A DNA stretch of 64,000 nt, taken from contig WHVA01000431.1 in NCBI GenBank assembly GCA_015179125.1, positions 33,908 through 97,907 of the forward strand, written 5' to 3'. Each line of letters opens with the position of its first letter. Positions within the stretch are counted from its first letter, which is position 1. A model generated the notes under the pieces. The model did not search any database, was not told the origin of the DNA, and worked only from the letters and a program-made list of their open reading frames with translations. The translations under genes and the position numbers were made by a program. Below are positions 11,063 to 64,000 of this stretch, piece after piece. Source of the stretch: Gautieria morchelliformis. Taxonomy: Eukaryota > Basidiomycota > Agaricomycetes > Gomphales > Gomphaceae.

Positions 11063-11294
11063 TGTAAGAGATATGCTCTTAGACCCTTGTATCACAAGGG
11101 CAAGCAGAACTCAACCAATATGGGGTATTCCATGTGCTACATAGTGACAGGGTAAGGTAAGTTAAGATGAGGAACTGTAGTGTGGTTCCTATGCAAGAAC
11201 TATACAGTGGATCCTTAAAGATCCATTGGCATTAGCTAATTACTCGAGTAGCATGCTTGCCTTAGGGGCAATGCCGGTAAATAGGGTATTTACA
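11063..11294 (-). mobile_element. 3' LTR of Gypsy-1 copy Y
   Basis: Starts TGTAAG and ends TTTACA on the plus strand, and aligns along its length with the Gypsy-1 LTRs at 45764-45976 and 60503-60719 (shared ACTATACAGTGG block and CAGAACT..ACCAA block). It is followed by CCCTCCCCCTCT (11295-11306), the complement of a polypurine tract AGAGGGGGAGGG, which fixes the element on the minus strand. Confidence 0.8.
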
Positions 11295-11593
11295 CCCTCC
11301 CCCTCTATGAACAACTCAGGGATCACTCATAAAGATCCCTGGTGATATAATTGGTCGCTGCATCTGACATGTTGATATTGTCATATGGGGCCGTAGGACT
11401 GTGGGGGTCCATCGGTAGATATGAGTCATGGGTGGGGGGCATTGAGTGAGAATTTGATGCCCATTTCCTGCTAGAAGGCTGCCTTGGCGACTGGGTTGTT
11501 CACTGGCGAAGGGCACCATGTAACAGCTAGCTCTTGGTGTAGCTGTGTTCGGGCAGTCCTTGATGCCATGTCCGATGTCATGGTGGCTCTTTC

Positions 11594-12083
11594 TGTTAGC
11601 AACTAGGGGCTATGGCAGGGAAGGTTCGGTAGAGTTCTTAGAAAGCTAGAATCAAATACACTCTCCCAGTGAATTTATTGTCATTGATATATTAATACAG
11701 TACCTAGAATCAAATACACTACATGATTTTCAGTCAACATGCTATGTAAATATGAAGAATACTACTCGCCTCTCTCAGTGAATTTATTGTCACTGAGAGA
11801 GGAGTACAATCCTGTCTCAGAAGGCATATACGTGCACCCGGCCCTTTAGCGCCCAAGAGCTCGCGCGTCAAAAGTCATTTCAAACTCCGCTGGGTGCAGC
11901 CGCCTGTGAAAATAGAAATAACAGAATGAAATGGAGAGGTAGAGAGTGACTGGAAAATTTCAAAAATAAGCAGAGAAATGGATGCATGGTACAAGAACAA
12001 TGTGAGAAACAATTGGAAACACCACACACTAAATTGAACATATTATGCTTGATTTTGGTGCAGGAGCATAAATGCACCCAACA
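11594..12083. mobile_element. Solo LTR, ~490-bp family, copy A
   Basis: Begins TGTTAGCAACTAGG and ends CACCCAACA, flanked by the perfect 5-bp duplication CTTTC (11589-11593 and 12084-12088). Inside is a hairpin of CCTCTCTCAGTGA and its complement around ATTTATTG (~11770-11804). Lies in ORF3 of copy Y. No coding capacity. Confidence 0.92.
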
Positions 12084-12357
12084 CTTTCATGGTCACACAG
12101 AGCTGCCTGCCGCAGCCTCTCCTGCCCTAACTGGGCAGGAGCATTGAACACAGTCCCAGTGAGGTCACATTGGGTGAATCACTTGACCCATGCTGTGGTC
12201 TTACAGGTCATACTGCCATGCCTGCCTACCCAGCGAGCGACTTCCTTGAGAGGAATGTCTTGGGTGGTCTGACCTTGGATCAGGAATACTCCGGTGATGG
12301 ACACCCTCATGGTGTCACCTGTGGTGAACAGGATTTCACTGTCTGATATGAAAGTCC

Positions 12358-12845
12358 TGTTAGCAACTAGGGGTTATGGCAGGGAAGGTTCGGTAGAGCT
12401 CTTAGAAAGCTAGAATTAAATTCACTCTCTCAGTGAATTTATTGTCACTGTTATATTAATACAATACCTAGAATTAAATTCACTACATGATTTTCAGTCA
12501 ACATGTTATGAAAATACAAGAATCCTACTCGCCTCTCTCAGTGAATTTATTGTCACTGAGAGAGGAGTACTATCCTGTCTCAGAAGGCATATACATGCAC
12601 CCGGCCCTTTAGCGCCCAAGAGCTCGCGCGTCAAAAGTCATTTCAAACTCCGCTGGGTGCAGCCGCCTGTGAAAATAGAGATAACAAAATGAAATGGAGA
12701 GGTAGGGAGTGACTGGAAAATTTGGAAAATAATCAGAGAAGTGAGTGCATGGTACAAGAACAATGTGAGAAGAGATTGAAACACCACACAATAAATTGAA
12801 CATATTATGCTTGATTTTGGTGCAGGAGCATAAATGCACCCAACA
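12358..12845. mobile_element. Solo LTR, ~490-bp family, copy B
   Basis: Same ends as copy A and flanked by the perfect duplication AGTCC (12353-12357 and 12846-12850). Inserted 274 bp from copy A in the same ORF3 relic. Confidence 0.92.
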
Positions 12846-13620: not shown

Positions 13621-16600
13621 TCAAGCTCGACGCATTCCGAGGATCCCGAGGATGTGGAGATGCTTGCGAGCTGGTAGCGGCTTGGTGAGGACGTCGGCTG
13701 GATTCTCAAGTGATTTGATATATCGAAGATTGATATTTCCAGCTGTGATTTGTTCTTTGGTATAGTGGTAATGGATATCGATATGTTTCGTCCTGCTGTT
13801 GTTGACGCTGTCGTTCGAGAACGCGATGGCGGATTGGTTGTTGGTGAAGATAGGGATGGGGGTGAATTCGTGTCTGAAGTCCCTCCCTAACCTGATGAGC
13901 CATATCCCCTCTGCTGAGGCAAATGATCCTGCCACTACCTCTGAGTCCATCGTTGATCGGCTGACACTGATTTGTTTCTTTGATGCCCAACATATAGGTG
14001 CCCCGTTATATGTGAACAACCATCCGGTAGTCGATCTCCTGTCATCTTTATCCGCTGCGAAATCTGCGTCCGTGTATCCTGCCAAGTTATGTGCGAATCC
14101 CATGGCCCCGTCCCCTTCTCTGAGGTATGTTATTCCGTACTCTTTGGTGTTCAATAGGTATTGTAGGATTCTTTTGGCTGCTTCCCAGTGAGTAATGTTA
14201 GGCTTGGATGAGAACTGTGCGCATCTGTTGACCGCATAGGCTATGTCTGGTCGAGTTGCCACTGCACAGTAGTTTAAGCTTCCGATTATCGATGCGTAAG
14301 TGTAGTCGATAATTTCTGATGTGGAGGTGGAGACTCGTAGTTCAGTGTTTGGGTCCATTGGGGAATTTACTGTATGTCCGGATGTTATTTCGAATCGTTT
14401 GGCGATGGTGTTAATGAATGCTGGTTGGGAGATGTGTATGGTGCCGTGTTCTCGATTCCTGACGATCTGGATACCGAGTAATCGTGTCGGGTCTCCCAAA
14501 TCCTGTATTTCAAAGCTCCCCCTGATGTCTCTGATCATCCTCTCCATTGCAGTCAACGAGTTCGATGTGAGGAGTCCATCATCCACATACCATCCTGCAA
14601 TCTCAATGTTGTCTCCTTCCCCAAATCTGAGGAATATTGTCCTATCCGCCTCTCCCGCTTTGAATCCCATTTTCTCCATCTGTTCTTTCAGTGTCCCGTG
14701 CCATACTCTCCCGCTTTGTTTGAGTCCATATATTCCTTTATTCAGTTTGCAGACCAAATTCTCTTCTCCCTGTTTGATAAATCCCTCCAGTTGTCGCATG
14801 TATACGGTGTCGTCGAGCTTTCCGTTCAGGTAAGCTCCCTTCACGTCGATGTGTCGTAGTTCTAGATTGTATTTGGTTGCGAGGGTGAGGATAAGTCGAA
14901 TTGAGGTGAGTCGAATGGTGGGGGAATATGTTTCTTGGAAGTCGACTCCTGGGACTTGTGAGTATCCCTGTGCAACGAATCTCGCCTTGAACTTATCCAC
15001 TTCTCCTAGATTATCCCTCTTCACTCTGAATGTCCATCTGCTCCCTACAACGTTCGTTTCTTCTGGTCTCTCGGTTAGTTCCCATGTCTTGTATCCTGTT
15101 AGCAGATCGTATTCGTCCTGACATGCCTTCCTCCATTTCTCTGCGTCCCTCGATTTCATTGCCTCTCTGTAACTCGCCGGTTCATCCTCTGCTAATACTA
15201 CGAATGCTGTTTCCGTTTCTTCAAGTGTCGTTCTTCCTCGTGCCATCGCTGCTACCTCTATGAGTAATGCTGTGTGTCATTTTCCCTTCCCGTAATCAGT
15301 GTTTGTTGGATTCATCCATGGTCCCTTCAAGAAATCCTTCGGTGCTGTTTCCTCGCTTCCTTCTCTCCCTGTGTCCCCTTCTGACTGTTCTGTTAGTTCT
15401 TCCCTTTCGTCGTTTTCTGTTTCTGTTCGTTCCTCCTCCTCTCTTTGTTTCATCACGATCCCCTCGACTTCTTCCACTTCAATCTCCTCCTCTTCTTCCA
15501 GACTTAGATCAATGAGTGGTGGGATGTTGTTGTTGTCGTCGTCTTCAGCTGGATCATTTCTGGATTGCGACGGTGGGGAAAATGATGGTAGTTTTCCGTC
15601 AAGTACCCATAGATAGGGGTCGTCGTCCTCCTCTTCCACATGTAGAGTTGTATGTTCGACGTGTTTTAGTTCATCGAATACTACATCTCTTGACTTCAGC
15701 AGTGTCTGAGTTCGTGGTATCCACACCTTGTAAGATTTTGAGTTGTCAAAGTATCCCACAAAAATCCCTTCGATCGCTTTGTAGTCTCCCTTCTTCCTTG
15801 TGGCTTTTGGGACTAGTGCCCAACACCTGGATCCGTATGTTCGCAGCCAATCGAGTCTGGGTCTGGTTTTCCAAAAGGCCTCATAAGGTGATTTGTTGAT
15901 TTTCATGTGTAGCATGCGGTTCTTGACGAAGTTGACGGTGTGTATGCTGGATACCCAGAATCGTTTTCTGAGTTCTGCATCGTTCTGTAAGGTGAGGGCT
16001 CCTTCTTGTAGAGTTCTGTTGTATCTCTCGGCGATACCATTGTGTTCTGGTGTGTGAGGGGTTGTGGTTTCGTGAACAATTCCAAGCTCACTGCATGTAC
16101 TTTCGAATTCCTTCCCGGTGTATTCTCCCCCGTTGTCCGTCCTTATCCTCCTCACTTCCGCTTTCCTTTGTGTTCTTAACCATGCGATATATTCTTTGAA
16201 TGATTTCGTGACGGTTGTGCATTCCTTGTTCTTCAGAAAGTCGATGTGTGTGTATCGAGTGGCGTGATCGATCCATGTGATGAAGTATTTGTATCCTCCG
16301 ACTGATGTTTTGAATGGTCCACATAGGGCTGATGATACGATGTCTCCGATCTTCTCAGGTGTGTCCTCGATGTTTTTGAATGGTGAACGCGTCTGTTTTC
16401 CGAAAGGGCAGTTGGTGCATATGTTTAACTCCTCCTCACTACTGATCTTCGGTAAACCGACACCTGTCTGCTGTTTCCACATCTTCTGAATTGTTGATGT
16501 GGCGGTGTGTGCTAGTCTGTGATGCCATAGTGTCAATTGATTCGGTTTATCAAAGTAGAGAGCCTTCTCTGGTTCGGGTTTCGTTGACGGTTGAGCCATG

Positions 16601-18123
16601 TAGGCGTATAAGTTGTCGATCCTCGTTCCTTGGGCTAAGATTTCGTCTCGCATCAGTAGGGACGTGTCATCTTTGCTGAACATGACGTCTACGTTCACGT
16701 TGGTCATTTTGGCTATGGAGAGTAAGTTGGCGTTGAGTCTTGGGATGAATATGACGTCGATCAGTGTGAGGGCTAGGGGTGGTAGTTGTAGGTGAGCGTC
16801 GCTTTGTAGAGTTATTCTGATGGTTCCCCTCTGATCGACTCTGAAGGAGTCTCCGCTGGCCGTTTCGATGGAAATCGGTGGTGTGGGATGCGTTTCGTCG
16901 AATAAATCGATGTTGCCGCATAGGTGACTAGTGGCCCCGGAATCGACTAGCCAGATGTGTACATTGTCCTTTATGGCTGATAATGCCATGGAATCTGTTG
17001 ATAGGACTATATCACTGGCCTCGGGGTCTGCTTTCGTCTCCTCGTGTGCCATCATGATGATGTCTTTCTTTGGCACGTTGGCGAATTGTGCTGAAACATT
17101 GTTGGCGTTTGGTTGGTGTTGAGGTGTTGTCGGTCTGTTATTTTCAAATATTTTGGGTCCGTTGTATCCCCCTCCCTGTGAGTTTCCTCCTCCCATCATG
17201 TTCCCTCCTTGTGTGTTGTTGTATTTTCTCCATGGTTCGTGCATCGCTAGTCCTCCTCCTGGTGCATGACATCTTGATGCTGAGTGATTTGGTTTGCCGC
17301 AGTTGTTGCAGGAGAAGTTGTGTCCTCCTAATTGTTGGATCGGGGGTCGATTCTGTTGTGTGTTGTAGCTGTTGAATGTTGGTCGAGCCGGTGAGTTGTT
17401 GAAACGTCTAGGTTGTCGAGTCTGTGCCACGAATGCCGTGGCCGCTTGTGTCGATACCTCGACGGCACCTAGGTCAGCTTCGTGCGCTTCCAATTTCTCT
17501 TCGATTTCGTCTGGGTCTCTAGTGATCATACGTATGGTTTGTGCGATGGGTCTCCATGATTCAGGTACGTTTCTGAGTAGAGTGGCACAGTGTGTGGAGT
17601 CGGCAATGGGGTCTCCCATTTTTGCCAGTTGATTCCTATATTCTTTCATAGTAGTAATATATTCCGAGACTGATTGTCCCTCTGTCATGTGATAGTTCTC
17701 GTACCTTGTCCTAATGATACTGATTTTGCTCGGATCGGTTGATTCGAATTTCCTAATCAGTATGTTCCATGCCTCGGCGCATAATTCCGTTTCGTCGATG
17801 GCCGTCTGTAATTCTGGTGATATACATAGAAGGATTTGGCTATACGCAACGTTGTTCCTGTCATCCCATTTGTCTTGTAGTTGTGTGAGTGGGGTGTTGC
17901 CGATCATGTCGATTCCGGTGACAACTGTGATGCATGGGTCAGTGTTGGTAGGGTAAATGTCCGTACCGATGATGGTTTTGTATATCCCTCTGTCCCTCGC
18001 CGTTGCCAGTAGTTCCCTCTTCCATGAAATCCAGTTGTTCTTGTTGAGTTTTGGTTTTATGTCTCGGAATTTATGTACGTCGTGCTTTGGTGGTGATTGG
18101 GTGGTCGTAGGTGCCTGTGCCAT
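13621..18123 (-). CDS. Copia gag-pol polyprotein with one in-frame TGA
   Basis: One continuous frame of about 1500 codons from ATG at 18123 to the stop at 13621, broken only by TGA at 15277-15279 (948 residues before it, about 551 codons after). In order: gag (UBN2-type, ~1-240); CCHC knuckle CNNCGKPNHSASRCH (~275); aspartic protease WLVDSGATSHLCG (~393); GAG-pre-integrase H-H-C-C with LWHHRLAH and CTNCPFGKQ; integrase core with D, D and E visible in TWIDHATRY, RTDNGGEY and HNGIAERYNR; acidic linker; TGA; RT with YVDDG; RNase H with GYTDADFAADKDDRR and TMDSEVVAG. The TGA falls in the integrase-RT linker, so a nonsense change, or leaky readthrough, is possible. Apart from that stop, all expected motifs are present. 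Confidence 0.93.
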
Positions 18124-18882: not shown

Positions 18883-19951
18883 ATGTATGCATGTCCTGAG
18901 GGGTGAGGGGGGCTTTGTGTTTCTGGGAGCAATCACCCTCAGCCACATCCATACATCCACGTCATGGATGTTAAGGCTGCCATCACGCTCCTTGCGGATG
19001 GCAGGTGGAATTCTTTCAGGGTTGTAGAGCCAACCCTGGAGAACATCCTGGATGTTGTTGGTGGTGCCCTTGCCAATGATGAAGCAGCCTGTTCTGTGGC
19101 TCCTCCCCTGGGCTTTGTCCTGGAATATCTGAGCATGGTGACCATGCCGCATGAATGGGACCCCGATGGCATTTCTTTTGCCTGCCTCAGCAGGTCCTGA
19201 AACCTCTGCTCTTTTGTGTTGCAGATGTCGAACCACTCAGTGCATTGCTGTGTTCTTTTGCCCATGGGCTGTGGCAGGTGGCCCATCACAGAGAATGGCA
19301 GGTCTCTGAGAGGGCTAAGCTCCCCTTCCCCTGTGAGAGGGTTGGGAACTGTCATTGCCAGCGGGGGCAAGGACATTGATGGTGCTGGCGGAAGGATCAT
19401 TCATCCTGCCCTCTCCTGCTTGCCTGCAATGTATTCTGCCTGGGCGGTGTCAAGTTCCTGTGCCAATGCTGGGTTGTCAACCATATGGCTTCATGACTGG
19501 CAACGTACTTTCTGGTGACATGTTTTCATATGTCACTGATGGGGTCTTAAGTCATGAGTGCATCATGACCTCGGGCATGTCCTTTCTTGGAGATGTGCTG
19601 GGTGTGATCTGTATTGTAGGTTCTCAGATCTTAGTCATCTGAGTAAAAGCCATCAGGCACATCATCAATCAATGCCGGTGGCTCACTTGGGCCCGTGAAC
19701 GATGGGCTGGGTGGGCTGGCCATCTGGGCTATGAGGCCCAGCACTGGCTGGGAGGTGGTGGTGGGCCACCAGCCCCAGTGCTGTGCATTATGGCAAAGGG
19801 GCCCTTGTGCAGGATGATGGCCTCACTATGGGTTGTGGGGCTGCTGTTAACACTTGCTTTGCAGTCGCAAATTTGTTTTGTAGGGCCTGGAGTTGTCTCC
19901 CCAGGTCCCACGTGTTGGCATGCTAGTGAGGATCCTGATGTCATCCTTCAG

Positions 19952-43507: not shown

Positions 43508-45002
43508 CCACCGTGCGATCTCGGTGAGCGGGACCAGCTCAGCCTCTCACGGGATATGGGCCTGTGATGGACAACCGCAGGCTGGTGCTCTGCGGTGTCA
43601 GGCACTCCCTGGCATCGACGAAGCTTGACCATTGATTGGTCAGCCTGAACAAGTCGAGGAGTCTCAACTTGAGAGGTGATGTGACCCCTTTAACTCGGGG
43701 CGCGAGGGCCTTCAACCACATCCAGGCATCCATGTCGTCTAGGTTGAGGGTTCCATCCACGTTGTCGCGGATGGCAGAAGGGATTCCTTTGGGGCTGTGT
43801 ATCCAACCCTTTAGTATGGCGGCGATGTCGTGTGGGGTGCCGCTCGCTATCACGAGACAATCCCGTTTGGGATTGCGAGCACATTGCTTGCGCTCGATGC
43901 GCTTGAACACGCCAATCATCTCGTGTGTGCACAGGAACTGCGGCATGTCCTTTGCGCGCGCTAGGAGCTCAAAGAAGCATGCGTTGTTGAGAGGGCAGAC
44001 GTTGTACCATTGAGTATGCCATTGCTGTGCCTTTCCTACTGGTCGTGGTAGGAAGCCTGTCTCGGAGATTGGCAGGTCTCCGAGTTGTATGATCACTCCC
44101 TCCCCCGGGTAGGGAGGGTGAACTGTCCCCACCGGCAGCAGCAGGTCCACGTGAGGCCTGATGTAATGGGCCTCGACCAACACTACCTGCTGTTGTAGGG
44201 CAGGGTCATTGATTGTGTGTGATGGTGACGCCGCCAGGTATGCGCTGATCATGCTTTCCTTCACAATGGCTAGACCATTGATGGTGTTAGGGGTACCGTG
44301 CAATTTCTTGCGCTTCTTTTTTGGCTGCTCAGCCATTCGCTGAGCTCTGTCCGGCTTGTACGTCTTCCAGACAGAGGAGTTGGACTCCCATCCTTCCGGG
44401 ACGCTGTATGCAGCGTTGGACAGTGCGCTCCGCCCCTCTGTTGATGTCGGGGTGGGAGCCAATAATCAGGAAGCCAGTCCCGAGGCTGTGCGCGGGGGCA
44501 GGGGTGCCGTCGCACGAGGTGATGAGGGGTTGGCCACTGGGTCTGTGGCTGGGTCATGGCACGGCCTTTTTGAGGCTGCGTGGGTGAGCTGGAGTGCCTT
44601 CAGCTGCTCCTCGATCTCTTTTACTCTAGCACGCTCGACTTTGAGTGCGTCGTCGCGGTCTTTGACTGCGTGTTCAACCTCTTTTTTGGGGTCATGGACG
44701 TCCTGCAGGGGCTCCACTCGCACGTCACGCGCGATGCCCCTTGGGATCCATCCCCAGGCCGCGTCGACGGCGTCGCCGATGTCTTCATCCTTCAGCTTCA
44801 CCTTGCAGGTGCCTGTTGCGGCCCGTAAGTGAGCGGCGTAAGCCGCACAGGTATCGCAGTCGTCTGGGTGGACGATTGCCAGAGCGTCTTCCCATCCTAC
44901 GATCATCCAGTGCTCTTGATCCACTGGGGCTCATAGGATGTTGGCGGCCCCTTGTCTCGGGGCCATTGAGTGTGTTGTGGACATTGACGGCTCAACGTCC
45001 AT
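43508..45002 (-). pseudogene. ORF3 of Gypsy-1 copy T, 3' truncated
   Basis: ATG at 45002 (MDVEPSMSTT), 141 bp after the pol stop. The frame is open to 43539 except for TGA at about 44931 and TGA at 44463; copy X has an Arg-type codon and no stop at these places, so both look like point decay. Parts are VGWEDALAIVHPDDCDTC, a coiled coil (DDALKVERARVKEIEEQLKAL), a nuclear-localisation-like PKKKRKK, then the conserved core: VHPPYPGEGVII, GFLPRPVGKAQQWHTQWYNV, CARNPKRDCLVIASGTPHDI, GWIHSPKGIPSAIRDN and DMDAWMWLKALAPR. It breaks off at EIARW (about 43508), where copy X continues. Unknown function; no signal peptide or membrane helix. Confidence 0.75.
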
Positions 45003-45143
45003 CCCATCTTTGGGTGGCATCATCTTTCTGGGGAGATGATGGTGGTTTGCTTCCAAGAAGTGATGCGCCTCAGAAAGATCCGAGGGGAAAATTTAACCGT
45101 GCCGAGGCCAGTGCATCATGTGGTGTTCAGGTGACAGACACAT

Positions 45144-45763: not shown

Positions 45764-45976
45764 TGTAAATAACCTGTGTATCTACATGTACAATAGTTAT
45801 TACATAATCCCAGTGGGCCCCTTAGGGACCCACTGTATAGTTTATGCGTGGGAACCGGCCAGCGGTTCCCATCGCATCTTACCCTTACACTGTCACTACG
45901 TAGCATCAGAATACCACACCTTGGTCAAGTTCTGTCGTGCTCTTGTGACCTGAGGCCTAAGATAGATATCTTTACA
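45764..45976 (+). mobile_element. 5' LTR of Gypsy-1 copy X
   Basis: 213 bp, TGTAAATAACC to ATCTTTACA. About 95 percent identical to the LTR at 60503-60719 (inverted). Left flank CATAT is the complement of ATATG found beside the other LTR. Confidence 0.88.
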
Positions 45977-51299: not shown

Positions 51300-54210
51300 G
51301 GGTGGAAAGATGTATAGTAGGGGGCTGGCAACACACCAATTTCAACTCTGGCAATGCTGTATGCTGGTGTACATTGGGGACCACTGAAGCTGTCTCCAGC
51401 AGCAATGAGGCAATTTCATCATGACCATTCGCCACTGCTGCCTGCAGTGCACCACCATACACTCCTCCTTGGGTGTTGACATCAGCACCCTTCTCTAGGA
51501 GCAACTGGACAATCATATCATGACCCTGTGATGCTGCTGCATTCAGTGCACTCCCATAGTGTCCTCCCTGAACATTCACGTCTGCGCCCTTTTCTAGGAG
51601 CCAACTGGATAATCATATCATGACCCTGTGATGCTGCTGCAATCAGCACACTCCCATACTCTCCTCCCTGAGCATTCACGTCTGCACCCTTCTCTAGGAG
51701 CAACCGGACAATTGGTTCATGACCATGTATCGTCACTGCCTCCAGTGCACTCCTATGGCCTCCTCCGTGAGCATTCACGTCTGCCCCCTTCTCTAGGAGC
51801 AATTGGACAATTGTATTATGACCATGTGATGCCGCGGCCTGCAGTGCACTCCCATAGTGTGCTCCCTGAGCATTCACATCTGCCCCCTTCTCCAGGAGCA
51901 ACTGGATAATCATATCATGACCCAAGGACACTGCTGCATTCAGCACACTCCCATACTCTCCTCCTTGAGCATTCACATCAGCACCATTCTCTAGGAGCAA
52001 TCAGGCAGTCCTATCATCACACTCAATCACCGCTGCCTGCAGCGCACTCCCATGGTGTCCTCCCTGAGCATTCACATCTGCACCCTTCTCTAGGAGCAAC
52101 TGGACAGTCTTACGATGACCATGTGACACTGCAGCCTGCAGTGCACCCCGATGGCCCCCTCCATGAACATTCACAACTGCACGCTTCTCTATGAGCAATG
52201 AGACAATTGTATCATCACCCCTTGATGCTGCTGCCTCCAGGGCACTCCCATAGTGTGATCCCTGCACATTAATGTCTGCACCCTTCTCCATTAGCAACCA
52301 GACAATTGTATCATGACCCCCTAACACAGCTGCAATCAGCACACTCCCATAGTGTGCTCCCTGCGCATTCACATCTGCACCCTTCTCCAGCAGCAACTGG
52401 ACAATTGGTTCATGACCATTTATCGCTACTGCCTCCAGCGCACTGCTTCCTCCAGCGCACTGCTTCCTCCATGAGCATTCATCTCCCCGCCGCTCTCTAG
52501 GAGCAACTGGACAATTGTATCATGACCATGTGATGCTGCAGCCTCCAGTGCACTTTGGTAGCGTGTGCCCTGAGCATTCATGTCTGCACCACTCTCTAGG
52601 AGCAACAGGACAGTTGTATCATGACCCTCTAATGCTGCAGCCTGCAGCACACTCCCATACCCTCCTCCTTGGGCATTGATGTTGGCGCCATTCTCTAGGA
52701 GCAACTGGATAATCATATCATGACCACACGATGCTGCTGCAGTCAGCGCACTCCCATAGCATCCTCCCTGATCATTCACTTCTGCACCCTTCTCTAGGAG
52801 CAACCGGATAATCATATCATGTCCCCCGACCACCGTGGCAATCAGTGCACTCTCAAACTCTCCTCCGTAAGAATTCATGTCTGCACCCTTCTCTAGGAGC
52901 AACCGGACAATTGGTTCATGACCCTTTACTGCTGCCACCTCCAGTGCACTTTCAGAGTGTGCTACCTGAGCATTCACATCCGCACCCTTCTCTAGGAGCA
53001 ACTGGATAATCATATCATGACCCTATAATGCGGCCACATTCAGTGCACTCCTATAGCATCTCCCTGAGGATCCACGTCAGCACCCTTCTCTAGGAGCAAC
53101 CAGATAATCATATCATGACCCCGTGACGCTGCCACCTGCAGTGCACTCCCATAGCATCCTCCCTGAGCATTCACATCTGCACCCTTCTCTAAGAGCAACT
53201 GGACAATTGTATCATGACCCCCATCCACTGCTGCAATCAGCGCACTCCTACTGTTTCCTTCATGAACATTCATGTCTGCACCCTTCTCTATGAGCAACTG
53301 AACAATTGAATCATGACCCTTATCCGCTGCCGCCTCCAGTGCACTCCTACCTCTGTGTGTATTCACATCTGCACCATTCTCTAGGAGTAACCTGACAATG
53401 GTATCATGACCCTTTAATGCCGCCACCTGCAGTGGTGTGCCATTGTGTCCTCCAGGTGTATTCACAGCCAATCCCTTCTGCATCAGACATTGGCATGCTC
53501 GTTCCAACCCAGTCTCAGCTGCAATGCAAAGAGGATTTGTCCTAGATATTGCCCATAGATCTCTCCCATGGTAAAGCCTTATCCAGTTGATGTAAACAGA
53601 ACTAGTGGGCTCCAAGAGCATCATGATCAGCTCATGTAGATCATCAGAGTGACCAGCTGGATCCCACCCAGCATGGTCCATCCATTTATATGTGGCATAA
53701 CGAGATAGTGGATATGTCCTGGCTGCATTTGATTTTACACCATTATCCTGGTCAAATTGCAACAGGTATGCCAGACATGTCTTCCCAATGAATACATGTG
53801 CAATCTTTTCATCAAAATAATAAGATGAAAGCATGGGCATGCTTGTGCGAAGATGTTCTGAGATCAGATATTCTCGCACGGAAAAGTATGCCAGCCTGAT
53901 TTCTCCTGCTTCTGTGAAGAGAACCCTGTCGTCATGGTGATCAATATTGCTCTTATTGCTGCTGTCCTCAGGGAATGTAATGGTAACAAGACTCGAACAT
54001 ATTGTAAGGATGTCTTGTGGATCCCAAAGCCACCAGCTCAGCTCAAACAGAGGTTCATCTATTGCATCAGGATCTGTAGCAATCATGTCCACAGCTTTAT
54101 CCAAAGATAATGTGTCAAAAGAGAAAGCCAGCCATTTCAGCAGGCTCAAAGAACCCTGCTTGTCATCCTCATCAATAGCAGCAAGAATTCGATCGTATGT
54201 CTCATTAAGT
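51300..54210 (-). pseudogene. NACHT-type gene 3' half with long ankyrin array
   Basis: Begins at the LINE tail with LNETYDRILAAIDEDDKQGS and SLLKWLAFSFDTLSLDKAVD, the helical stretch that follows NACHT domains in fungal NLR-like proteins. After ~200 further residues (YFSVREYLISEHL is typical) come about 21 ankyrin units of 33 residues (99 bp). Their consensus is close to GADVNAQGG.YGSALQAAA and GHD.IVQLLLEK. Frames change near 53030, 52410 and 51590, so the array is not translatable as one chain. The P-loop NTPase and any effector domain are missing because the gene is cut at 54210 by the LINE tail. Fungal NLR-like proteins of this build act in self/non-self or heterotypic recognition. Confidence 0.8.
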
Positions 54211-57200
54211 GTCTTTTTTATTTTTTTTTATTTTTTTTATATCCGATTTATCGTCTTTTGGGGCGGGGCCCTATGTAAGACACTTCTACAAATACCCGGT
54301 CGACATTTTCTTCTATCTAGCCCTTATGTCTCTATCTCTGCTTCTGCTCCATGGGCGACGCCCTGGGCTTGTCCGTGCCTCCGGCGGCGAGGTTTGGTTG
54401 CGCTTCTCGCGCGGTTCGCTCCTACTCTTTTCCTTCCTTCTCTTTATTTTCTCCCGTTTTCCCCCATCTCCAGGTTCCCGTATGTTCCCTCGAACCTCCC
54501 AGTGGCGCTGATGTACTTGAATAGAGCCTTCATTGCTTTTGGCTTGGCTAGTAGAGTGCTGACAGCGCTGGCGGCTCTTCTTAGTGTCCGCTTTAGTTCC
54601 TTGCGCTGCTCTTTGTATGTGGGGCATCTGTATAAGAAGTGGTGGACCGTCTCGTCCGCTCTTTTGCACGCTGCACAAATAGGTGAGTCGACCTTTCCTA
54701 TTTTGTATAGATGCTTGTTGAGTGCTATGTGGCCCGTTCTGATTTGTATTAGGATTGCTGCTTGTCTGCGGCCCATGCCTTCGGTCAACTTGGCGTATGC
54801 TGGGGATGGCATTGTCTTGTCTATTCTGTGCGCGTATTCGGATCTCGGCGATCTTGCGAACACTTATTTTGCTCTTGTTCTGAGTTCCTTCTTGTGCCTC
54901 TAGAGCTCGGCCGCCTTGCTTCTCGGCAGTGTGCCCTGGCATTCCATTGGGATGTACCTCTCTTCGCTGCTCTCCCCCCTCGCTGCCTTCTTAGCCTCTT
55001 CGTCTGCCCTTTCGTTTCCCTTGACCCCCTTGTGTCCCGGTGTCTATATCATTACCACTGTTGCGTTCGGTTGTGCTCTTGCAACATTCTCGAGCTGTCC
55101 ATGTATGACGTCAACCAGGTATTGCGCCGGGCTCTGCTTTTCTCTTCTGGTCGTCAGTATGGCCGCCTGGCTGTCCAACCCTATCACGTATCTTCCACTG
55201 CGTTCTGCGTTCAGCAACTTCACTCCCATCGCCACTCCCACTAGCTTGGCTTCGAATACAGTGTGCTCTGTTTCCGCTCCCAGATGGAGCCTCACTGTCA
55301 ACTCCTCTCTTCCGTCTCTGTAGAGGACTGCTGCTGCTCCTAAGCCGCCGTCTATGCATGACCCGTTGCAGTAGACTTGTATACACGCTGTTTCGCGTCT
55401 TATCTCCGCTATTGCCGTCTCCTCGTCTGGTGGGATTACTATTTGGAAAGCGGGGGCCCACTTGGGTCCTCTGACCACCATGTGTATCTTCTCCATCCTG
55501 TGTGGCTGGAGCCTATACGCATGCAATATCTTGTGCAGTGGCATTCAGTGTCTCTTGACATACCTGGAGGCGGCGCGATGTGCTCTGGGGGATAAGGGGT
55601 GACCTTCGGGGAGGCAGGCTATGCGGTCGGCGGCTCTGTGCACTACTTTGTCCACTAGCAGGTGGAATGGCAGTAGATTCGCGTGTGCATCTAATAAATC
55701 ACTCGCCATTGTGTTCATGGCACCTGTTATTGCTAGCGCGGCCTGTCTTTGAACTCTAGCAAGCTTATTGATGTGCCCTTTAGTCCCTTTGTTTCGCGTT
55801 GTGCCTGGCACCAGGTATACGTCAGCTGCGTACAATAGCTTCGGGACGGCTACCGCTATGTAGTATTGTCTCATGTACTTAGCTGGTACCTGTCATGACG
55901 CGTTTATTTCTCATATTCAGGTGCTCTGTCCTACCATTTGTCACTCCATCTCCGTGTTCGTTCCGATCGCCATTGTCATGTTCGGCAACCAATTCTCGCT
56001 GTTCGCACCAGTGACCATGGTTATACCGTCAACAAGCAATCAACGTCTTCGGACTAACTTAGCAGTCATTGTTGGGCCTATCATCTCCTCTGCTCGACCC
56101 TCTTCCGATGGTGTTCTGACAATCGGATTGTCATGACCCATGTATTTCCTGCACCTTGTTACCCCCATTCCCTCGTTCGCTACTCCTCCCCTGTGTTCGC
56201 TCGGCTTCGCCCTCCACCTACTCATCGTCTCCTTCCCTATTCTATCGATGTTCGCCCTCCCTCGCATTTCGCTGAACCGCTATTCACTGCTCGCACATTT
56301 CGCCAACAAGGCACGCCATCAAATACGATCGATACCATTTACCCGGCGTGATAATTCATCACTAACCCCATCATCTTCTTAAATCCAACCCCTTTGGGTT
56401 TTCGTATAGCCAAAGTATGTTCGCAGGGTGTTCCTTCCATAGGCCGTGTGGGATTGACCCAGTGGACGAAGAGTCCATGCAGGGTGACATGTATGCGGGT
56501 CCCAAGACATGGTTTCGTACATAAGTACCTTCGCCACCTTTACTCTCCGGTGTTTCATGTTCGCACTCCTCCCTCACTCTATTGTATGTTTATTCCATCT
56601 CCTTAGTATCATGACTGCGCACCCCTATCCAACCCTGACTCGTGACGGCCTCTTTCCTATTCGCTGATACCGTATGAGCATTCGATATAAGTAGTTTACA
56701 TTTGCATGTATATTCCCCAGTTCAATTATCATACATCGTTTGTCTTGTGCAGCTTTGACATCGCCGTGGTCATCATCCTAAGCCTTCTCTTGGAGATTCC
56801 CATCTTCGACTAGCAAAGGACTTAGGCATCACTGGTGAGTTCTCATACTTCATCTTCGTTACCTTAGCCTTTGAACCATTCTCTGTGCTGTTGGCGAAGG
56901 GCTCCGAAGGAGCACCTTCGCCAGTGAAGGGATTGTCGAGACTTAGACACCCCTTCCATGAGATCTTGCACGTTACATCGTCAAGAGTCACGGGCTGTTT
57001 CGCTACGACTGTAGATAGGGTGAGCCCCGTTTAGGCAAACCCTCTTACCTTGTGAACATCTATTGGTTCACCTATTCGCCGATCGGCATACTTATTTGCA
57101 CAAGTTATTCAGGCATTCGCTGTGTTCACTAATACACGATATTAACGCCTAAAACCCAATCTTGACAGTACCCCTCTTGACGGCTTGGCTAGTCTGCAGT

Positions 57201-57705
57201 ATTGTTCCACGAACTTGCTCCCCTTTTGCAGCGCGAAGTTGACCTGCTCCTTGAACCTGAGCTCCTGGTCGATTATGACCCAGAGGAACCTGTGGGAGGA
57301 CGTAGGCTTGACGACATGCTGCCCTATCTTTATGGTCGGTCGTGCCGTCGGTCTGGTCTTTTTGGTTCCTGTGGGGTCGGCTTCTCGCCTCCTTGTTAAA
57401 CCCATGAGTCCGAACTTGTTGACTGCGAAGGTGCAGTCGTGTTTTTGCGCCCATTCTTGCGCTCCTCCATGCCTGGTCATGATGCGTGTCAGTTTATCAG
57501 ACGCTTCATCCAGGCTCACCCCTTCTGTGAACAGTGTCGTGTCGTCTACAAAGCCGATGCTGTCTTCGCCTTTTTTTCCACTGGTGATCTCCAGGAGTCC
57601 GGCGTTGTAAAACTGGTATGATATCACCGATAGGGGGCACCCTTGGTCCATGCCGCGCCCGACTTCCATCATCTGCGTGCCATAGTCGTCCAATCGTAGT
57701 GTGTT
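54211..57705 (-). mobile_element. 5'-truncated LINE (Tad1-like), split by a solo LTR
   Basis: Minus-strand pieces 57705-57168 and 55890-54211. The first holds the end of RT (MDQGCPLSVISYQFYNAGL, FVDDTTLF). The second starts VPAKYMRQYYIAVAVPKLLY, then RNase H: VYCNGSCIDGGLGAAAVLY, HTVFEAKLVGVAMG, YVIGLDSQAAIL and GHKGVKGNERADEEAK. Next is a CCHC-like segment CAACKRADETVHHFLYRC. A tail of A on the minus strand (T-rich 54211-54240) marks the 3' end. The first RNase H Asp of the usual TDGS is Asn (CNGS). Frames are broken in several places. ORF1, endonuclease and most of RT are absent. Confidence 0.85.
55891..57167 (+). mobile_element. Solo LTR (family E), 1277 bp
   Basis: TGTCATGACGCG to ATCTTGACA, flanked by the perfect duplication GTACC (55886-55890 and 57168-57172) inside the LINE RT/RNase H linker. 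No coding sequence. The first 180 bp recur inverted at 1-181. Confidence 0.9.
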
Positions 57706-57771: not shown

Positions 57772-60502
57772 GTGCACCCCGATGCAATCTTAGGGATGCG
57801 ATTCCTAAGGATATTTGGCATCACCCTGGACTTCTCAAGCCCAGGGACAATCTGTAAGGGGAACGAAATAATCCCCACGGGCAAGGTATCGTTCGACGAT
57901 AACAAGTTGATGAATGAAGGCAAGGGGCCAAGGGTGAGCAGAATCACCCCGGCGCCGAAGCCAAACCTGGCTCATTGAAGCCAGGAGGACGAGTCGCATA
58001 ATGACTCATCCTCGAGCTCGCCCTACAACTGTAGGGAGAGGCGCTCTCACCTGATGGTGAAAGCGATGGTTAAAAGAAAGGCGGTCCCACGTGCCACAGG
58101 ACCTAATAGATACACACAGCGCCTAATGGCTTCTAAGCCAACTACCACCGTCATCCTCATGGATGACGACATCCATCGCCTCCACGAGGAATAGATGGAA
58201 AGGATCACTGACCTAGTCAGTGGTTCCATTAGAACTCCTGCCGCTGCGGGAGATCAACCATGAGATCAATCTCATCGATCCCAACAAACACATGTGGTAT
58301 TGACTACTGAAGTGCCCTGAACATTTCCGAGAGGAACTGTCGGCAAAGATAGAACACTACACCACTGCAAAGTGATGGATCCCGGCAGTTGCACAGCAGG
58401 CTGTACCCATGCTGTGTGTGCCGAAGAAGAATGGTGCATTATGAACCGTTTTCGATCTGCGCCAGCAGAACAAGAACACTGTGAAGGACATTACACCCTT
58501 CCCAGACGAGGATATCATCCGCAGTGACATGGCTCGCTGTCGGTATCGCATGAAACTCGATATGTCTGAAGCATACGAGATTCATCCAGATCACATAGCA
58601 AAGACTGCCTTTGCCACGATCCTTGGCACCTTCAGGAGCCAAGTGATACAGATGGGAGACTGTAATGCTCCATCAATGTTCCAGCGGCTGATGACAGCCA
58701 TATTCTGCGACTGCATAGGTCGCTTCGTCCATGTCTACATGGACGACATATTCATTTTCTCGCTCTCGATACAAGAGCACGAGGAGCACCTCTATATTAT
58801 CTTTGACAGACTGAGGAAGAATCACCTTTTTCTGAGCAAGAAAAAGGTCGATCTCTATTCCATCCGAATGGAGTGCCTCGGCCACATTATTGATGGTCAA
58901 GGTGTACACGTAGACAAGGATAAGATGCAACATATCTGCGAGTGGCGTAGGCCGTGGATGTTCAACAATGTCCAGCGATTCCTCAGGCTAGTACAATACC
59001 TGGCACATTACATGCCATATGTTAGCACATACACGACCCCGTTATCGGGCTGCGGTAACAACCGTCCATTTGAATGGACTCCGCTGCTGACAAATGCTGG
59101 CAAAGCATTCAGGTGTTGGCCTGTAAGGCCCGATCCTGTGTCCAATCAACGCACGGTGCCCCAAGAGCCAATCTGGGTGATCACCGATGGGTCACAAGCC
59201 GGCATCGGTGCGGTCTACGGCCAAGGCCCCAACTGGAAAACCTGTCGGCCAGCCGGCTTCTTGTCAAAGAAGTTCAGTGTTGCTCAGCAACACTACCGGA
59301 CTCATGAGCACAAGAAGATCCCGGTGCTCAAGGCTCTCATGAAATGGGAGGATAAACTGCTGGGACGAAGGTTCACCCTCATCACAGACCACAAAGGGCT
59401 CGAATACTTCGAGACCCAGAAGAGCCTGTCTGACCGCCAGGTCAGATGGTGGGAGTTTCTATCCCATTTCAACTTCAACACTGTACATGTTTACAGTGTA
59501 GAGAACAAGGTAGCAGACTGCCTGTCACGCTACTACGAGAGCGACACGAGGGACAACAGTCACCTGGACCACGTCTTCATAAATGCAGATGCGTGTTTAG
59601 ACCCAGAAGGTGAGCTACTGCCCACAGACCAGTATACTGAGCTGTGAACGGCAGTGACAAGACGGTCTAACCACCTCACGGAGAAGACTGAGGTGCGGAT
59701 ATTGGAATCTGCCACATTAAACGAGGGCTCACAAAAGCCCATGAATGGTGCCGCATCACGCGACGAATCAGCTCAAGAGAGACGTCATCGCTGTCCCCCG
59801 CTCTGTTCTTCAGGGGGGGAAGGAGGCTGATCAAAATCATCATCAATCAAGCACACCAGATAGTTGGTCACTAGGGCCATCTGAAGACATTGAACTACAT
59901 TCGAAAGTCATATTGGTGGCTGGGCATGAGCCCGGACATCGAGTCATTCTGCGCATCATGCGTGAAGTGCCAGATGACGAAAACTGGGCCACAACGGCCC
60001 AAAGGCTTACTACACAGCCTACCCATTCTGGATAGGCCGTGGCAGCTGATTGGCATCGACTTCATGGGGCCCCTGCCCAAATCTAATGACTGTGACTACC
60101 TGATGGTAGTCATCGACCGACTAATGTTGCATGTCCACCTCGTCCCAGCCATGATGAGCGTGTCAGCCAAGGGAGTAGCCTGGCTGTTTCTAAAAGAAAT
60201 CGTTCGGCTCCATGGAGTCCCAGACTCCATCATCTTGGATAGAGACTCAAAGTTCACATCAATCTTCTGGCGTGAACTACAGCGACTCATGGGGACTAAG
60301 CTCCTCGTGTCGACTGCCTTCCATCCCAACGGATGGAGCAACCGAGCGCGCAAACCACTCGATCGGACAGATATTGCGTGCGGTAGTCAGGGACGATCAG
60401 AAGGATTGGGCATTGAAATGCCCAATGGTTGAGGTCGCCCTCAACAGCAACGTCAGCGCAACCACAGGGTTTGCGCCCTTTGAGCTGAACCACGGCTATA
60501 TG
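57772..60502 (+). pseudogene. Gypsy-1 copy T: protease end, RT, RNase H, integrase
   Basis: Starts in the protease C-terminal part (AILGMRFLRIFGITLDF), then TGA at 57976-57978 with the frame open beyond it (SQEDESHNDSSSSSP). The RT N-terminal part follows (AVAQQAVPMLCVPKKNG-like, with TGA near 58442). The frame 58481-59647 (388 codons) contains RMKLDMSEAYE, the catalytic VYMDDIFIF, thumb LGHIIDGQGV, RNase H VITDGSQAGIGAVYG, ITDHKGLEYF and VADCLSRYY. Integrase runs from ~59860: CASCVKCQMTKTGPQRPKG, GIDFMGPLPKSND (first Asp), ILDRDSKFTSIFW (second Asp), and a one-base loss near 60328 before ATERANHSIG (Glu). It ends at FELNHGYM, where X is inserted. The 5' end is cut at 57772. Confidence 0.88.
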
Positions 60503-60719
60503 TGTAAATATATCTATCTTAGGCCTCAGGTCACAGACAACAGAACTTGACCAAGGTGTGGTATTCTGATGCTAGTAGTGACAGTGTAAGGGTAAGATGC
60601 ATGGGAACCGCTGGCCGGTTCCCATGCATAAACTATACAGTGGGTCCCTAAGGGGCCCACTGGGATTATGTAATAACTATTGTACATGTAGATACACAGG
60701 TTATTTACACCCTCCCCCT
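60503..60719 (-). mobile_element. 3' LTR of Gypsy-1 copy X
   Basis: 217 bp, TGTAAATATATC to TTATTTACA on the plus strand. It lies directly after ATATG of the interrupted integrase gene and before CCCTCCCCCTCT (60720-60731), the complement of the polypurine tract. Confidence 0.88.
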
Positions 60720-60745: not shown

Positions 60746-62703
60746 TTACTCATAGAGGTCGTCCATGAGGGAGTCCTCTAGAGTGGCCGATACGACGTCG
60801 TCATCGTCGTACGGGGCCGGAGGAGCACGTGACTCCTCCAGGGGCACCTCCGCATCGTCGGTGGTGATCGGGTGATGCTGGTCGGCCTCACCACTCGTGG
60901 CGGTCTCTGCTGGGACGCTGGGACCCGTGTCCTCGCGGAGCATGCCCTCAACGGCTGGGTCTCTGTTTGAGGAGGGGGCCGGAAGCGCACCAGCTCTTGG
61001 TCGAGCTGGGCGTGAGTGAGGGGTTGCAGCACTGCGGCCCTCACGTGGCTGGTCTCGATGACCTTTTGTTGGCCCTCACGGGCGGCGGCACTGAATGCTG
61101 CGCCGGTGATGCTGCGCTGAATGTAATGTTCAATGCGCGCTGCTCGCTCGCGAGTGACTCCCACGTAGCGGGCCAGCCATCTCGCGATCTCCACGAGTGG
61201 GATGTCGGGGCTGGCTCGGCCCTCCACGGGAACGGGCCCATGATTGAGAGCCGCAGGGTGGTGCTCTGAGGCGTCAGCACTTCCCTGGTGTCGACGAGGC
61301 TCGACCATTGGTCTGTCGAGCTGAAGAGGTCGAGTAGCCTCCCCTTAGCGGTGATGCAACCCCTTTGACCCGGGGTGCAAGGGCCTTCAACCACATCCAG
61401 ACGTCCATGTCGTCTAGGTTGAAGGTGCCATCCCGTTGTCACGGATGGCGGAGGGGATTCCTTCAGGGTTGTGTATCCAACCCTTCAGGATGGCGCGATA
61501 TCATGTGGGGTACCGCCTGCTATCACGAGACAATCCCTTTTGGGATTGCGAGCACGTTGTTTGCGCTCGATGCGTTTGAATACGCCGATCATCTCGCACG
61601 TACGCGCGATCTGTGGCGTTTCTTTTGCCTGCGCTATGAGTTTGACGAAGCGGGGTTCGTCGAGCGGGCAGACGTCGTACCATTGGGTACGACGTTGTTG
61701 GGCCTTTCCTACCGGTCGTGGTAGGAGGCCCGTCTCGGAGATCGGTGGATCTCCGAGTGGGATGAGCCTTCCCTCCCCTGGGTATGGAGGATGAACAGAC
61801 TCAACTGTCCCCGCCGGCGGAGGTAGGGCCATGCCAGGCCCAATGTACTGGGCCTCAACCTGTGCTATCCACCGCTGAAGGGTGGGGTCGTGGATGGTGT
61901 GCGACGATGACGCCGCTAGGTAAGCGCTGATTGCGCTTTCCTTCGCAATGGCTAGGCCATTGACGGTGTGGAGGGAGCCGCGCAATTTCTTGGGCTTCTT
62001 CTTTGGCTGCTCTGCCAGCCGCTGTGCCCGTTCGGGTCGTATGTCTTCCAGACGGACGAGTCAGACTCCCATCCATCTAGGACGCCGTACGCAGAGTCGG
62101 AAGGTGCGCTCTGCCCTCCGTTGTTGTCGTGGTGGGTGTTGGCGCCAACAATCGGGATGCGAGCCCCGATGTTGCGCGCGCCGGCAACGGCGCCGTCGGT
62201 GAGGTGAAGATGGCCCGGCCACTGGGTCTGTGGCTGGGTCATGTCCGGCCTTTTCGAGGCAGCGTGGACCAGGGTAACCTGGAGCTGGGCTGCACTCAGC
62301 TGCTGCTCCAGCTCCTTGATCCTGGGCGCTCGGTTACGAGCGCGTTGTCGCGGTCCTCGACCGTGCGTTCTAGCTCCTGGACCTCTTTTTGAGGTCGTGG
62401 ACTTCCCGGAGAGGCTCCTCCCGTGTGTCACGCACGATGCCCCGTGGGAGCCACCCCCAGGCAGCATCGACGGCGTCGCCGATGTCCTCATCCCGCAATT
62501 TGACCTTGCGGTGCCGGTCGCGGCCCTAAGGTGCACGGCGTAGTCCGCGCACGTCGCGCAATCGTCCGGGTGGACGATGGCGAGGGCGTCCTCCCATCCC
62601 ACGATAGTCCAGTGCTCCTGGTCTATCGGAGCACGGAGAATGTCCGCGCCCCTTGTCTCGGGGCCGTTGTTCGCGTTGTGGACGTTGACGGGTCAACGTC
62701 CAT
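60746..62703 (-). pseudogene. ORF3 of Gypsy-1 copy X, full span with frameshifts
   Basis: Start ATG at 62703, 144 bp after the pol stop; natural stop TAA at 60746, 27 bp before the LTR, after SLMDDLYE. It spans about 650 codons. N-terminal WEDALAIVHPDDCATC, coiled coil IKELEQQLSAAQ, WESDSSVWKTYDP, then the core seen in copy T: VHPPYPGEGRLIPLGD, GLLPRPVGKAQQRRTQWYDV, RARNPKRDCLVIAGGTPHDI and DVWMWLKALAP-like text. The C-terminal part, lost from T, is EIARWLARYVGVTRERAARI, EHYIQRSITGAAFS and LTHAQLDQELVRFRPPP, then an acidic end. At least four frameshifts. The helical C-terminal part with EIARWLARYVGV may be a folded domain. No known family recognised. Confidence 0.75.
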
Positions 62704-62847
62704 CCCATCTTTGGGGGGCATCATCTTCATGGGTAGATGATGGTGGTGGTTGCTTCCAAGAAGTGATGCGCCCTCGGAAAGATCCAAGGTGAAAATTTAA
62801 CTGCGCCGTGGCCGGCGCGTCACGTGGTCTTCACGTGACAGACGCGT

Positions 62848-63998
62848 CTAGCGGCTTCTGGGGAGGTCGCGTGGCTTGCCCACCCCCCGAAGCTCTAGGT
62901 AGCTATCCAGGGCTTCAAGGTCCTTGCAGGACGACATGGGTTCCCATGTCACATCACCTAAGGTCCAACGGACCTGGAATTCCAGGTCCGTCGAGTTTAT
63001 CCATCAATGCGCGATAATCTCGTCGACGAGCCACTCCTCATCGTCATTTGCTCCAAAGTCATAAAATGACTTGGCCTCACGACGAGGGAATAACTCGTTG
63101 TTGTTAGCCTCGTATCACCGTACGAGGCTGGAATGGAAGACCGGTGAAATGCGACGGCTTTTCAGTTCGTCGGGAAGATCAAGGGTCACCGTCGAGACGT
63201 CATTGTGAGCCGACTAATTTCTGGCTCTTCCTTTCGGGAGAGTTAGGTTTTGTGTTGAAAGGTAGACGCGGTCGTTGGCCGCATACCTGTCGCTCGCCAT
63301 ACGTTTCTTATTTGCGTGAAACATTTGCGTCACTCGATGCTCTATGATTGCATCGTGTGCCGCTATCAGGTTCCATTTTGCCTGATGTGCGAACCGGGCC
63401 ACCCCCTTGAACGGGGTGTCTGCGGCTATGGGAAGGTCTATCCGTGGCATATAGCCGTGGATCAGCTCGAAAGGTGCGAACCCTGTGGTCGCACTGCTGT
63501 TGCTGTTGAGGGCGACCTCAACCATTGGGCATTTCACTGCCCAATCCTTCTGACGTCTCTGATGACCGCAGGCAATATCTGGCCGATCGAGCGGTTTGCC
63601 CGCTTGGTTGCTCCATCCGTTTGTGGATGGAAGGCAGTTGACATGAGGAGCTTAGTCCCCATGAGTCGCTGGAGTTCACGCCAGAAGATCGACGTGAATT
63701 TTGAGTCTCTGTCCAAGATGATGGAGTCGGGAACTCCATGCAGTCGGATGACCTCCTTCAGAACAGCCAGGCTACTCCCTTGGCTGACACGCTCGTCGTG
63801 GTTGGCACGAGGTGTACGAGCGACGTTAGTCGGTCAATGACTACGATAAGGTAGTCGCAGTCGTTAGATTTGGGCAGGGGCCCCATGAAGTCGATGCCAA
63901 TCGACTGCCACGGCCTATCCGGAATGGGTAGGCTGTGTAGTAGGCCTTTGGGCCGTTGTGGCCCGGTTTTTGTCATCTGACACCTCACGCACGATGTG
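62848..63998 (-). pseudogene. Gypsy-1 copy X: integrase and chromodomain
   Basis: From the right edge: CQMTKTGPQRPKGLLHSLP, GIDFMGPLPKSNDCDYL, DRDSKFTSIFWRELQRLMG, ATKRANRSIGQIL (the catalytic Glu position reads Lys), EVALNSNSSATTGFAPFELI, then HGYMPRIDLP uninterrupted at the place where X itself entered copy T. A chromodomain EEWLVDEIIAHRWINST..VRWTLGDVTWEPMSS ends at TAG 62848. Frame changes near 63720, 63540 and 63215. The rest of pol lies beyond the window. Confidence 0.85.
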
Positions 63999-64000
63999 CA

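What the first reader, a model, noticed from the sequence alone, without database searches (positions are those of the whole stretch)
60746..62703. Conserved third ORF (about 650 codons) between chromodomain and 3' LTR of Gypsy-1
The same ORF occurs in three separately inserted copies (X, T, Y), always on the pol strand, starting 141-144 bp after the pol stop. In X and Y it ends in DLYE-stop just before the polypurine tract. It has a coiled coil, an NLS-like PKKKRKK (T), a conserved core with WMWLK and CARNPKRDCLVI blocks, a helical EIARWLARYVGV domain and an acidic tail. It has no signal peptide or membrane helix, so it is not an envelope. Position suggests a separate accessory protein, for example for nuclear import, targeting or silencing defence. 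I know of no described domain that matches.
Basis: partly seen in the sequence, partly recalled or inferred. Interest (0 to 1): 0.75.

Follow-up and report, generated by a model that had tools for sequence, protein, structure and literature searches.

The report
Mushroom retrotransposon's conserved third gene
A very abundant jumping gene of the false truffle Gautieria carries, after its usual genes, a third protein gene that natural selection has preserved, that matches no known protein family we could find, and that may have its own start signal.

Summary
The third ORF is real, but no copy in the window is open: Y has 13 single-base deletions, T has stops and is truncated, X is split by a nested Copia. 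ORF3 is as frequent as pol: 50-base probes count 436 pol ends, 474 leaders, 441 ORF3 cores. Selection is purifying: dN/dS 0.23-0.26 between subfamilies; pooled pN/pS 0.37 within the family (integrase region 0.41). No family cut-off was met in Pfam or NCBIfam, and database hits are Gautieria only. The protein has a predicted coiled coil, a basic NLS-like block, an orphan core, a weak HTH-like segment, an acidic tail and no membrane helix. New here: the 77 non-coding bases before the ATG are about five times less diverse than the adjoining 49 bases and 92% identical between subfamilies, which suggests an internal promoter/5' leader. Best reading: a nuclear regulator of the element's own expression, working like CERV of Cer1 or foamy-virus Tas. 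Function is inferred, not shown.

The parts
60746..62724 (-). ORF3 of copy Y (broken: 13 one-base deletions relative to L008)
62725..62801 (-). conserved non-coding leader / candidate internal promoter of ORF3 in Y
   Evidence: coordinates derived from the ATG at 62724 and the gap-free alignment of L001
62802..62850 (-). less conserved spacer from the pol stop to the leader, with CACGTG boxes
62851..64000 (-). 3' part of pol of Y (integrase, SH3-like and chromodomain-like end), cut by the contig end
60710..60721 (-). polypurine tract of Y
   Evidence: 12 bases before the LTR
60503..60709 (-). 3' LTR of Y
57781..60508 (+). 5' part of the pol of an older copy into which Y is inserted
43530..45023 (-). 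ORF3 of copy T, residues 1-510, with 3 stops
45024..45097 (-). ORF3 leader of T
   Evidence: 74 bases aligned to the 77 of L008
45147..45761 (-). 3' end of pol of T
45764..45976 (+). 5' LTR of a + strand copy inserted in the pol of T
18895..19490 (-). divergent ORF3 of X, 5' piece (core)
11326..12373 (-). divergent ORF3 of X, 3' pieces to DLYE-stop
11063..11294 (-). 232-bp 3' LTR of X
13621..18123 (-). Copia element nested in the X ORF3

Best explanation
ORF3 is a regular, selected third gene of a very successful chromovirus-like Ty3/gypsy family. It most likely encodes a nuclear, self-associating, nucleic-acid-binding regulator of the element's own expression. Proposed working: (1) a separate ORF3 transcript starts at a conserved internal promoter/leader between the pol stop and the ORF3 ATG and ends at the 3' LTR; (2) the protein multimerises through its coiled coil and enters the nucleus through the PKKKRKK-type block; (3) the conserved core and the HTH-like segment bind element DNA or RNA; (4) the acidic tail (SATLEDSLMDDLYE and variants) recruits host machinery, raising transcription or export of the genomic RNA. 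Shown: the gene, its frequency, purifying selection, the conserved non-coding leader, the absence of membrane helices. Predicted: the coiled coil. Inferred: promoter activity, nuclear entry, nucleic-acid binding, activation.
For: ORF3 probes as frequent as pol probes (436 / 474 / 441). dN/dS 0.23-0.26 for T against four copies over 306 codons, core 396-500 pooled pN/pS 0.20. Leader: diversity 0.017 in 31 copies against 0.092 in the next 49 bases; 6 of 74 differences between T and L008, P 2.6e-10 against the synonymous rate; indels of 1, 2 and 5 bases, so not coding. Start kept in 33 of 33 aligned copies and a LYE- or LHE-stop in 26 of 26 loci whose polypurine tract/LTR start was recognised, of 30. 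Coiled coil with pLDDT up to about 90. PKKKRKK in 5 of 9 long frames, variants in 4; acidic tail in 9 of 9; net charge -17 over the last 103 residues in 3 copies. Weak HTH-type matches.
Against: No RNA or protein data. The HTH-type matches (E 0.044-0.14) are below their cut-offs. The LTR and the pol-ORF3 spacer share no more 7-mers than shuffled LTRs do (1 against 2.8 expected), so no common binding site is seen. Several coding 50-mers are kept as often as the leader at up to 3 mismatches (leader 31 of 33 copies; some coding windows 31-33 of 33), and 8.5% of coding windows are as alike between T and L008. The adjoining spacer is rich in CpG, which may exaggerate the contrast. The leader's two inverted repeats could act in RNA instead. 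Both AF2 models are poor overall (mean pLDDT 38 and 46).
Confidence: 0.45

Rival explanations
1. ORF3 is an integration or nuclear-import factor that travels with the particle or pre-integration complex and brings it to the nucleus or to preferred chromatin, beside the chromodomain.
For: Basic NLS-like block; position next to the integrase/chromodomain end; T and Y are both parts of self-insertions at the same pol site.
Against: LTR flanks at other copies are diverse, with no fixed target. A separate leader is not needed for a particle protein, which could be fused to pol.
Confidence: 0.2
2. ORF3 is an anti-silencing or host-defence antagonist that binds the element's chromatin or a host silencing protein.
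For: Hundreds of copies show that the family has long escaped silencing; lineage-specific protein.
Against: Antagonists often evolve fast, whereas the core is the most constrained part (0.20). No direct evidence.
Confidence: 0.15
3. ORF3 is a structural or assembly protein of the particle (a scaffold-like second Gag).
For: Coiled coil and low-complexity linkers; a weak scaffold-protein match in the coil region.
Against: No significant similarity to the element's own Gag (best E 4.5); no capsid or zinc-knuckle family match.
Confidence: 0.1
4. The conserved 77 bases are an RNA element (internal ribosome entry, RNA export or packaging signal), not a promoter.
For: Predicted two-hairpin fold at -18.0 kcal/mol; location in the genomic RNA.
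Against: Changes in the first stem include ones that break pairs (in L007, L016, L026), and the changes seen look like CpG decay rather than compensation (judged by eye). No shuffled control was run for the fold.
Confidence: 0.3
5. ORF3 is a passenger without function.
For: 26 of 30 fetched copies carry a stop or frame-shifting indel relative to L008; the X, T and Y copies are all broken.
Against: dN/dS 0.23-0.26 between subfamilies; pooled pN/pS like that of the integrase region (0.37 against 0.41); start, leader and stop kept.
Confidence: 0.02

Closest known systems
CERV of Cer1, a Caenorhabditis elegans LTR retrotransposon (PMC10309623; abstract and passages seen)
   Same: Extra non-envelope protein of an LTR retrotransposon, about 500-660 aa, leucine zipper or coiled coil, KRKK-type NLS, no relatives outside its host lineage.
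   Different: CERV comes from a spliced five-exon mRNA sharing exons with gag; ORF3 has its own ATG and leader and no such sharing was seen. No sequence comparison with CERV itself was run; the database searches gave no nematode hit.
Tas and the internal promoter of prototype foamy virus (PMC4411673; passages seen)
   Same: A regulator gene after pol with a second, internal promoter is the arrangement proposed here.
   Different: Foamy viruses have an env gene that holds the internal promoter; promoter activity and transactivation are not shown for ORF3.
TRP28 and other additional ORFs of plant Retand elements (PMC11963269; abstract and discussion seen)
   Same: Additional ORF between pol and the 3' LTR, probable DNA binding, unknown origin.
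   Different: Retand ORFs are antisense and the elements are non-chromoviruses; ORF3 is sense.
ORF3s of bdelloid rotifer LTR retrotransposons (PMC5408684; abstract and section 3.3 seen)
   Same: Diverse third ORFs after gag and pol, family-specific.
   Different: Those are esterases, exonucleases or envelopes; no such domain was matched here.
Additional ORF of unknown function in the survey of fungal and spikemoss Gypsy elements (PMC2864245; one section and passages seen)
   Same: An 'add. ORF' is listed in the legend of its figure 3.
   Different: Which element carries it, where, and its sequence were not seen, so identity with this ORF3 is untested. Gautieria is not among the 25 fungi surveyed.

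Membership tests
Ty3/gypsy element | gag, protease, RT, RNase H and integrase in gypsy order, between LTRs | tested here: met
   RVT_1 and RT_RNaseH over cut-off; Integrase_H2C2 and SH3_Tf2-1 over cut-off in 3 of 3 pieces, rve in 2 of 3; Asp_protease_2 over its cut-off in one window piece; LTRs
Chromovirus | chromodomain at the integrase C-terminus | tested here: inconclusive
   Pfam Chromo E 0.0063, 16.9 bits against a cut-off of 25.1, in 1 of 3 pieces
Envelope (retrovirus-like env) | signal peptide and transmembrane helix | tested here: not met
   maximum 19-residue hydropathy 1.06, N-terminus not hydrophobic, 3 copies
Any curated Pfam or NCBIfam family | score over the curated cut-off | tested here: not met
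   best Pfam E 0.00098 at 20.2 bits against 27, in the coiled coil; PHROGs, which has no cut-offs, best E 0.032
CERV-like regulator | sequence homology to CERV | not tested
   no direct comparison; database hits are Gautieria only
CERV-like regulator | nuclear protein required for genomic RNA export | not testable with these tools
   -
Foamy-virus-type two-promoter element | internal promoter for the accessory gene | tested here: inconclusive
   conserved non-coding leader; no expression data
Retand TRP28 ORF | antisense orientation to pol | tested here: not met
   ORF3 on the pol strand in 14 of 14 listed pairs

The most novel reading that the evidence does not exclude
A fungal LTR retrotransposon with a two-promoter, complex-retrovirus-like programme: the LTR drives gag-pol, and a conserved internal promoter drives a lineage-specific nuclear regulator with a new fold, evolved apart from foamy virus Tas and nematode CERV.
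Probability: 0.35. Interest if true: 0.75.

Novelty: new variant of a known kind. Interest (0 to 1): 0.52.

Why it matters
Extra genes after pol are described in plant, rotifer and nematode elements; in the eight paper searches made here I found no characterised case in a fungus. Here the gene is as frequent as pol in a family of roughly 450 copies, is constrained about as strongly as the integrase, and is preceded by a discrete conserved leader. That makes a retrotransposon-encoded regulator with its own promoter directly testable by a 5'-end map and a reporter assay, and offers an orphan protein domain for structural work.

Tried and rejected
Protein database: three searches. The first two scored only the 7996 and 7990 candidates sharing most words; the third, on residues 394-500, had 342 candidates and no cut was reported. 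Hits: 4, 3 and 2 proteins, all Gautieria morchelliformis. Relatives sharing few 5-residue words, or of very different length, would be missed. AlphaFold2 on P0002 and on the open T piece gave poor models (mean pLDDT 46 and 38). In the P0002 model the best stretch is the coiled coil; in the T piece, which lacks it, only two helices around its residues 61-100 exceed 60. No fold search was run on such models. A PDB profile search gave 2 chance matches (E 1.6 and 1.7) in parts of P0003 outside ORF3. Splicing as source of ORF3 mRNA: I saw no conserved acceptor in the leader (by eye), which is not proof. Site-specific integration: rejected by diverse flanks. ORF3 as a duplicated Gag: best E 4.5. The suspicion that 26 of 40 pol copies lack ORF3 came from the capped list; 3 of the 26 were fetched and 3 of 3 have it; the other 23 were not looked at singly. 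Shared LTR/spacer motif: none beyond chance. X was compared with L008 by codons over 165 positions only, with dS near saturation. A whole-genome protein search for diverged or host relatives of ORF3 did not complete.

Papers: PMC7550596 was seen as a search listing only. PMC3411680 (Laccaria elements): passages only; the words ORF and open reading frame do not occur in its main text. The library lacks most subscription journals, so absence of prior description is weakly tested.

Full report
Where it is. The window ends at the end of contig C484 of a 122-Mb genome (window C484:33908-97907; contig length 97907). Protein names and a matching contig length (302353) point to Gautieria morchelliformis, a false truffle. 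The carrier is a Ty3/gypsy element: RVT_1, RT_RNaseH, Integrase_H2C2 and Tf2-1-type SH3 match over their cut-offs, rve in 2 of 3 pieces, and a chromodomain-like end stays below its cut-off. Gag has a CCHC motif, seen in the translation. LTRs are about 214 bp, TGTAAATAACCC...TTTACA, after the polypurine tract AGAGGGGGAGGG. One pair of LTRs (L034/L039) has a 5-base target duplication, GCATG, spans about 9.2 kb (my arithmetic) and differs at 4 of 213 positions. Two other pairs (5 and 9 of 214) have no matching flanks and may not be two ends of one insertion.

Checking the observation. In Y the homologous protein runs from 62724 to 60746 on the minus strand but is spread over three frames. Against L008 it has 13 one-base deletions and no in-register stop. 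Y and L002 differ by 5 substitutions and 15 gap openings over 3736 columns; L007 and L008 by 193 and 2 over 3617; other pairs by 83 and 2 (L006/L020) and 76 and 7 (L015/L008). Part of the damage to Y is therefore probably assembly error, though only 2 of 13 deletions lie in runs of three or more. T matches residues 1-510 in one frame with 3 stops. X is 35-42% identical in three pieces, is split by a Copia element, is abutted by a + strand LTR and has no pol match upstream on its strand. The three X-type loci fetched share DNA beyond the LTR, which means duplication of one dead copy rather than separate insertion.

ORF3 in the genome. Of 30 loci fetched with the Y query (Y itself included), 9 have an open frame of at least 640 codons. 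Four are free of stops and frame-shifting indels over 663 codons relative to L008, itself one of the four. Whole-genome counts with 50-base probes at up to 3 mismatches are 436 (pol end), 474 (leader), 441 (ORF3 core) and 274 (an ORF3 middle stretch); reversed controls give 0.

Selection. Nei-Gojobori dN/dS among the 9 long frames is 0.22-0.74 in 36 pairs, pooled pN/pS 0.37. T against four copies: 0.23-0.26 over 306 codons. X core (L042) against L008: dN 0.44, dS 1.83 over 165 codons. Integrase region of 21 of the 30 loci: pooled pN/pS 0.41. Within ORF3 the core 396-500 is most constrained (0.20) and 241-335 least (0.71).

Protein. No curated Pfam or NCBIfam cut-off is met; the best Pfam match is a coiled-coil hit (20.2 bits, cut-off 27), and PHROGs and PDB sequence matches are weak and mostly in the coiled coil. 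The best-predicted structure is a helix at residues 90-134 of P0002. The basic block is PKKKRKK in 5 of 9 frames with variants in 4; a CxxC and the acidic tail are in 9 of 9. Net charge is +4 to +6 at residues 241-258 and -17 over the last 103 residues, and no stretch is hydrophobic enough for a membrane helix, in 3 copies. IPLAEIARWLARYAGVTRERAARIEHYVQRS gives sub-threshold HTH-type matches (TFIIB_C_1 E 0.044, HTH_Tnp_ISL3 E 0.054); its likeness to sigma-factor region 4 is recalled, not tested.

The leader. The 77 bases before ATGATG have diversity 0.017 in 31 copies against 0.092 in the 49 bases after the pol stop, and pooled synonymous differences of 0.118 in the 9 long frames. T and L008 differ at 6 of 74 leader positions against 0.41 expected from synonymous sites (P 2.6e-10); 8.5% of 1986 coding windows are as alike. 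Indels of 1, 2 and 5 bases occur in it, so it is not coding. All places listed for the leader probe are exact (the list is cut, apparently at 100), against 28 exact for the pol probe and 41 and 54 for the ORF3 probes. Against a unique status, some coding 50-mers are kept as widely at up to 3 mismatches, and the adjoining spacer is CpG-rich. The leader holds TTAAATTT, CTCGGATCTTTCCGAG and CTTCTTGGAAG. That TTAAATTT is TATA-like and that TCGG-N6-CCGA and CACGTG resemble known fungal factor sites is recalled, not tested. I read the block as internal promoter with 5' UTR; an RNA element is the main alternative.

Interpretation. An extra, non-envelope, lineage-specific nuclear protein with zipper and NLS has one well studied analogue in an LTR retrotransposon, CERV of Cer1, needed for export of genomic RNA (PMC10309623, abstract and passages). 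The two-promoter arrangement recalls foamy virus (PMC4411673, passages). Retand TRP28 ORFs are antisense (PMC11963269, abstract and discussion); bdelloid ORF3s are enzymes or envelopes (PMC5408684, abstract and one section); an additional ORF of unknown function appears in a figure legend of PMC2864245, whose sequence I did not see. ORF3 is filed as a new variant of a known kind: it may work like these regulators, but membership in none of their families is shown.

Noticed in passing
window 45761-45764 and 60502-60508: T and Y are both parts of self-insertions, in opposite orientation, at the same pol site (ATATG) of an older copy; possibly one nested structure present twice, or an insertion hot spot.
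   Followed up: partly
window 11063-11294 and LTRs of the Y family: The LTRs of the X and Y families can both form a hairpin at the same place with different stem letters (CAGTGGGCCCCTTAGGGACCCACTG against ATGGATCTTTAAGGATCCACT), which looks like compensatory change (by eye).
   Followed up: no
window 52058-53357: Degenerate direct repeats of about 99-bp period, 70-73% identity to the reference copy.
   Followed up: no
window 55044-57693, minus strand: Reading frames that look like RNase H and reverse transcriptase of a non-LTR element (by eye).
   Followed up: no
window 11593-12018 and 12357-12781: Tandem pair of about 425 bases, 93-94% identical, inside the X region.
   Followed up: no
L039 and L041, directly after the 5' LTR: The bases after the 5' LTR (CCTTTTTGAACTATCC) do not begin with the TGG usual for a tRNA primer site (recalled), so the priming mechanism is open.
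   Followed up: no
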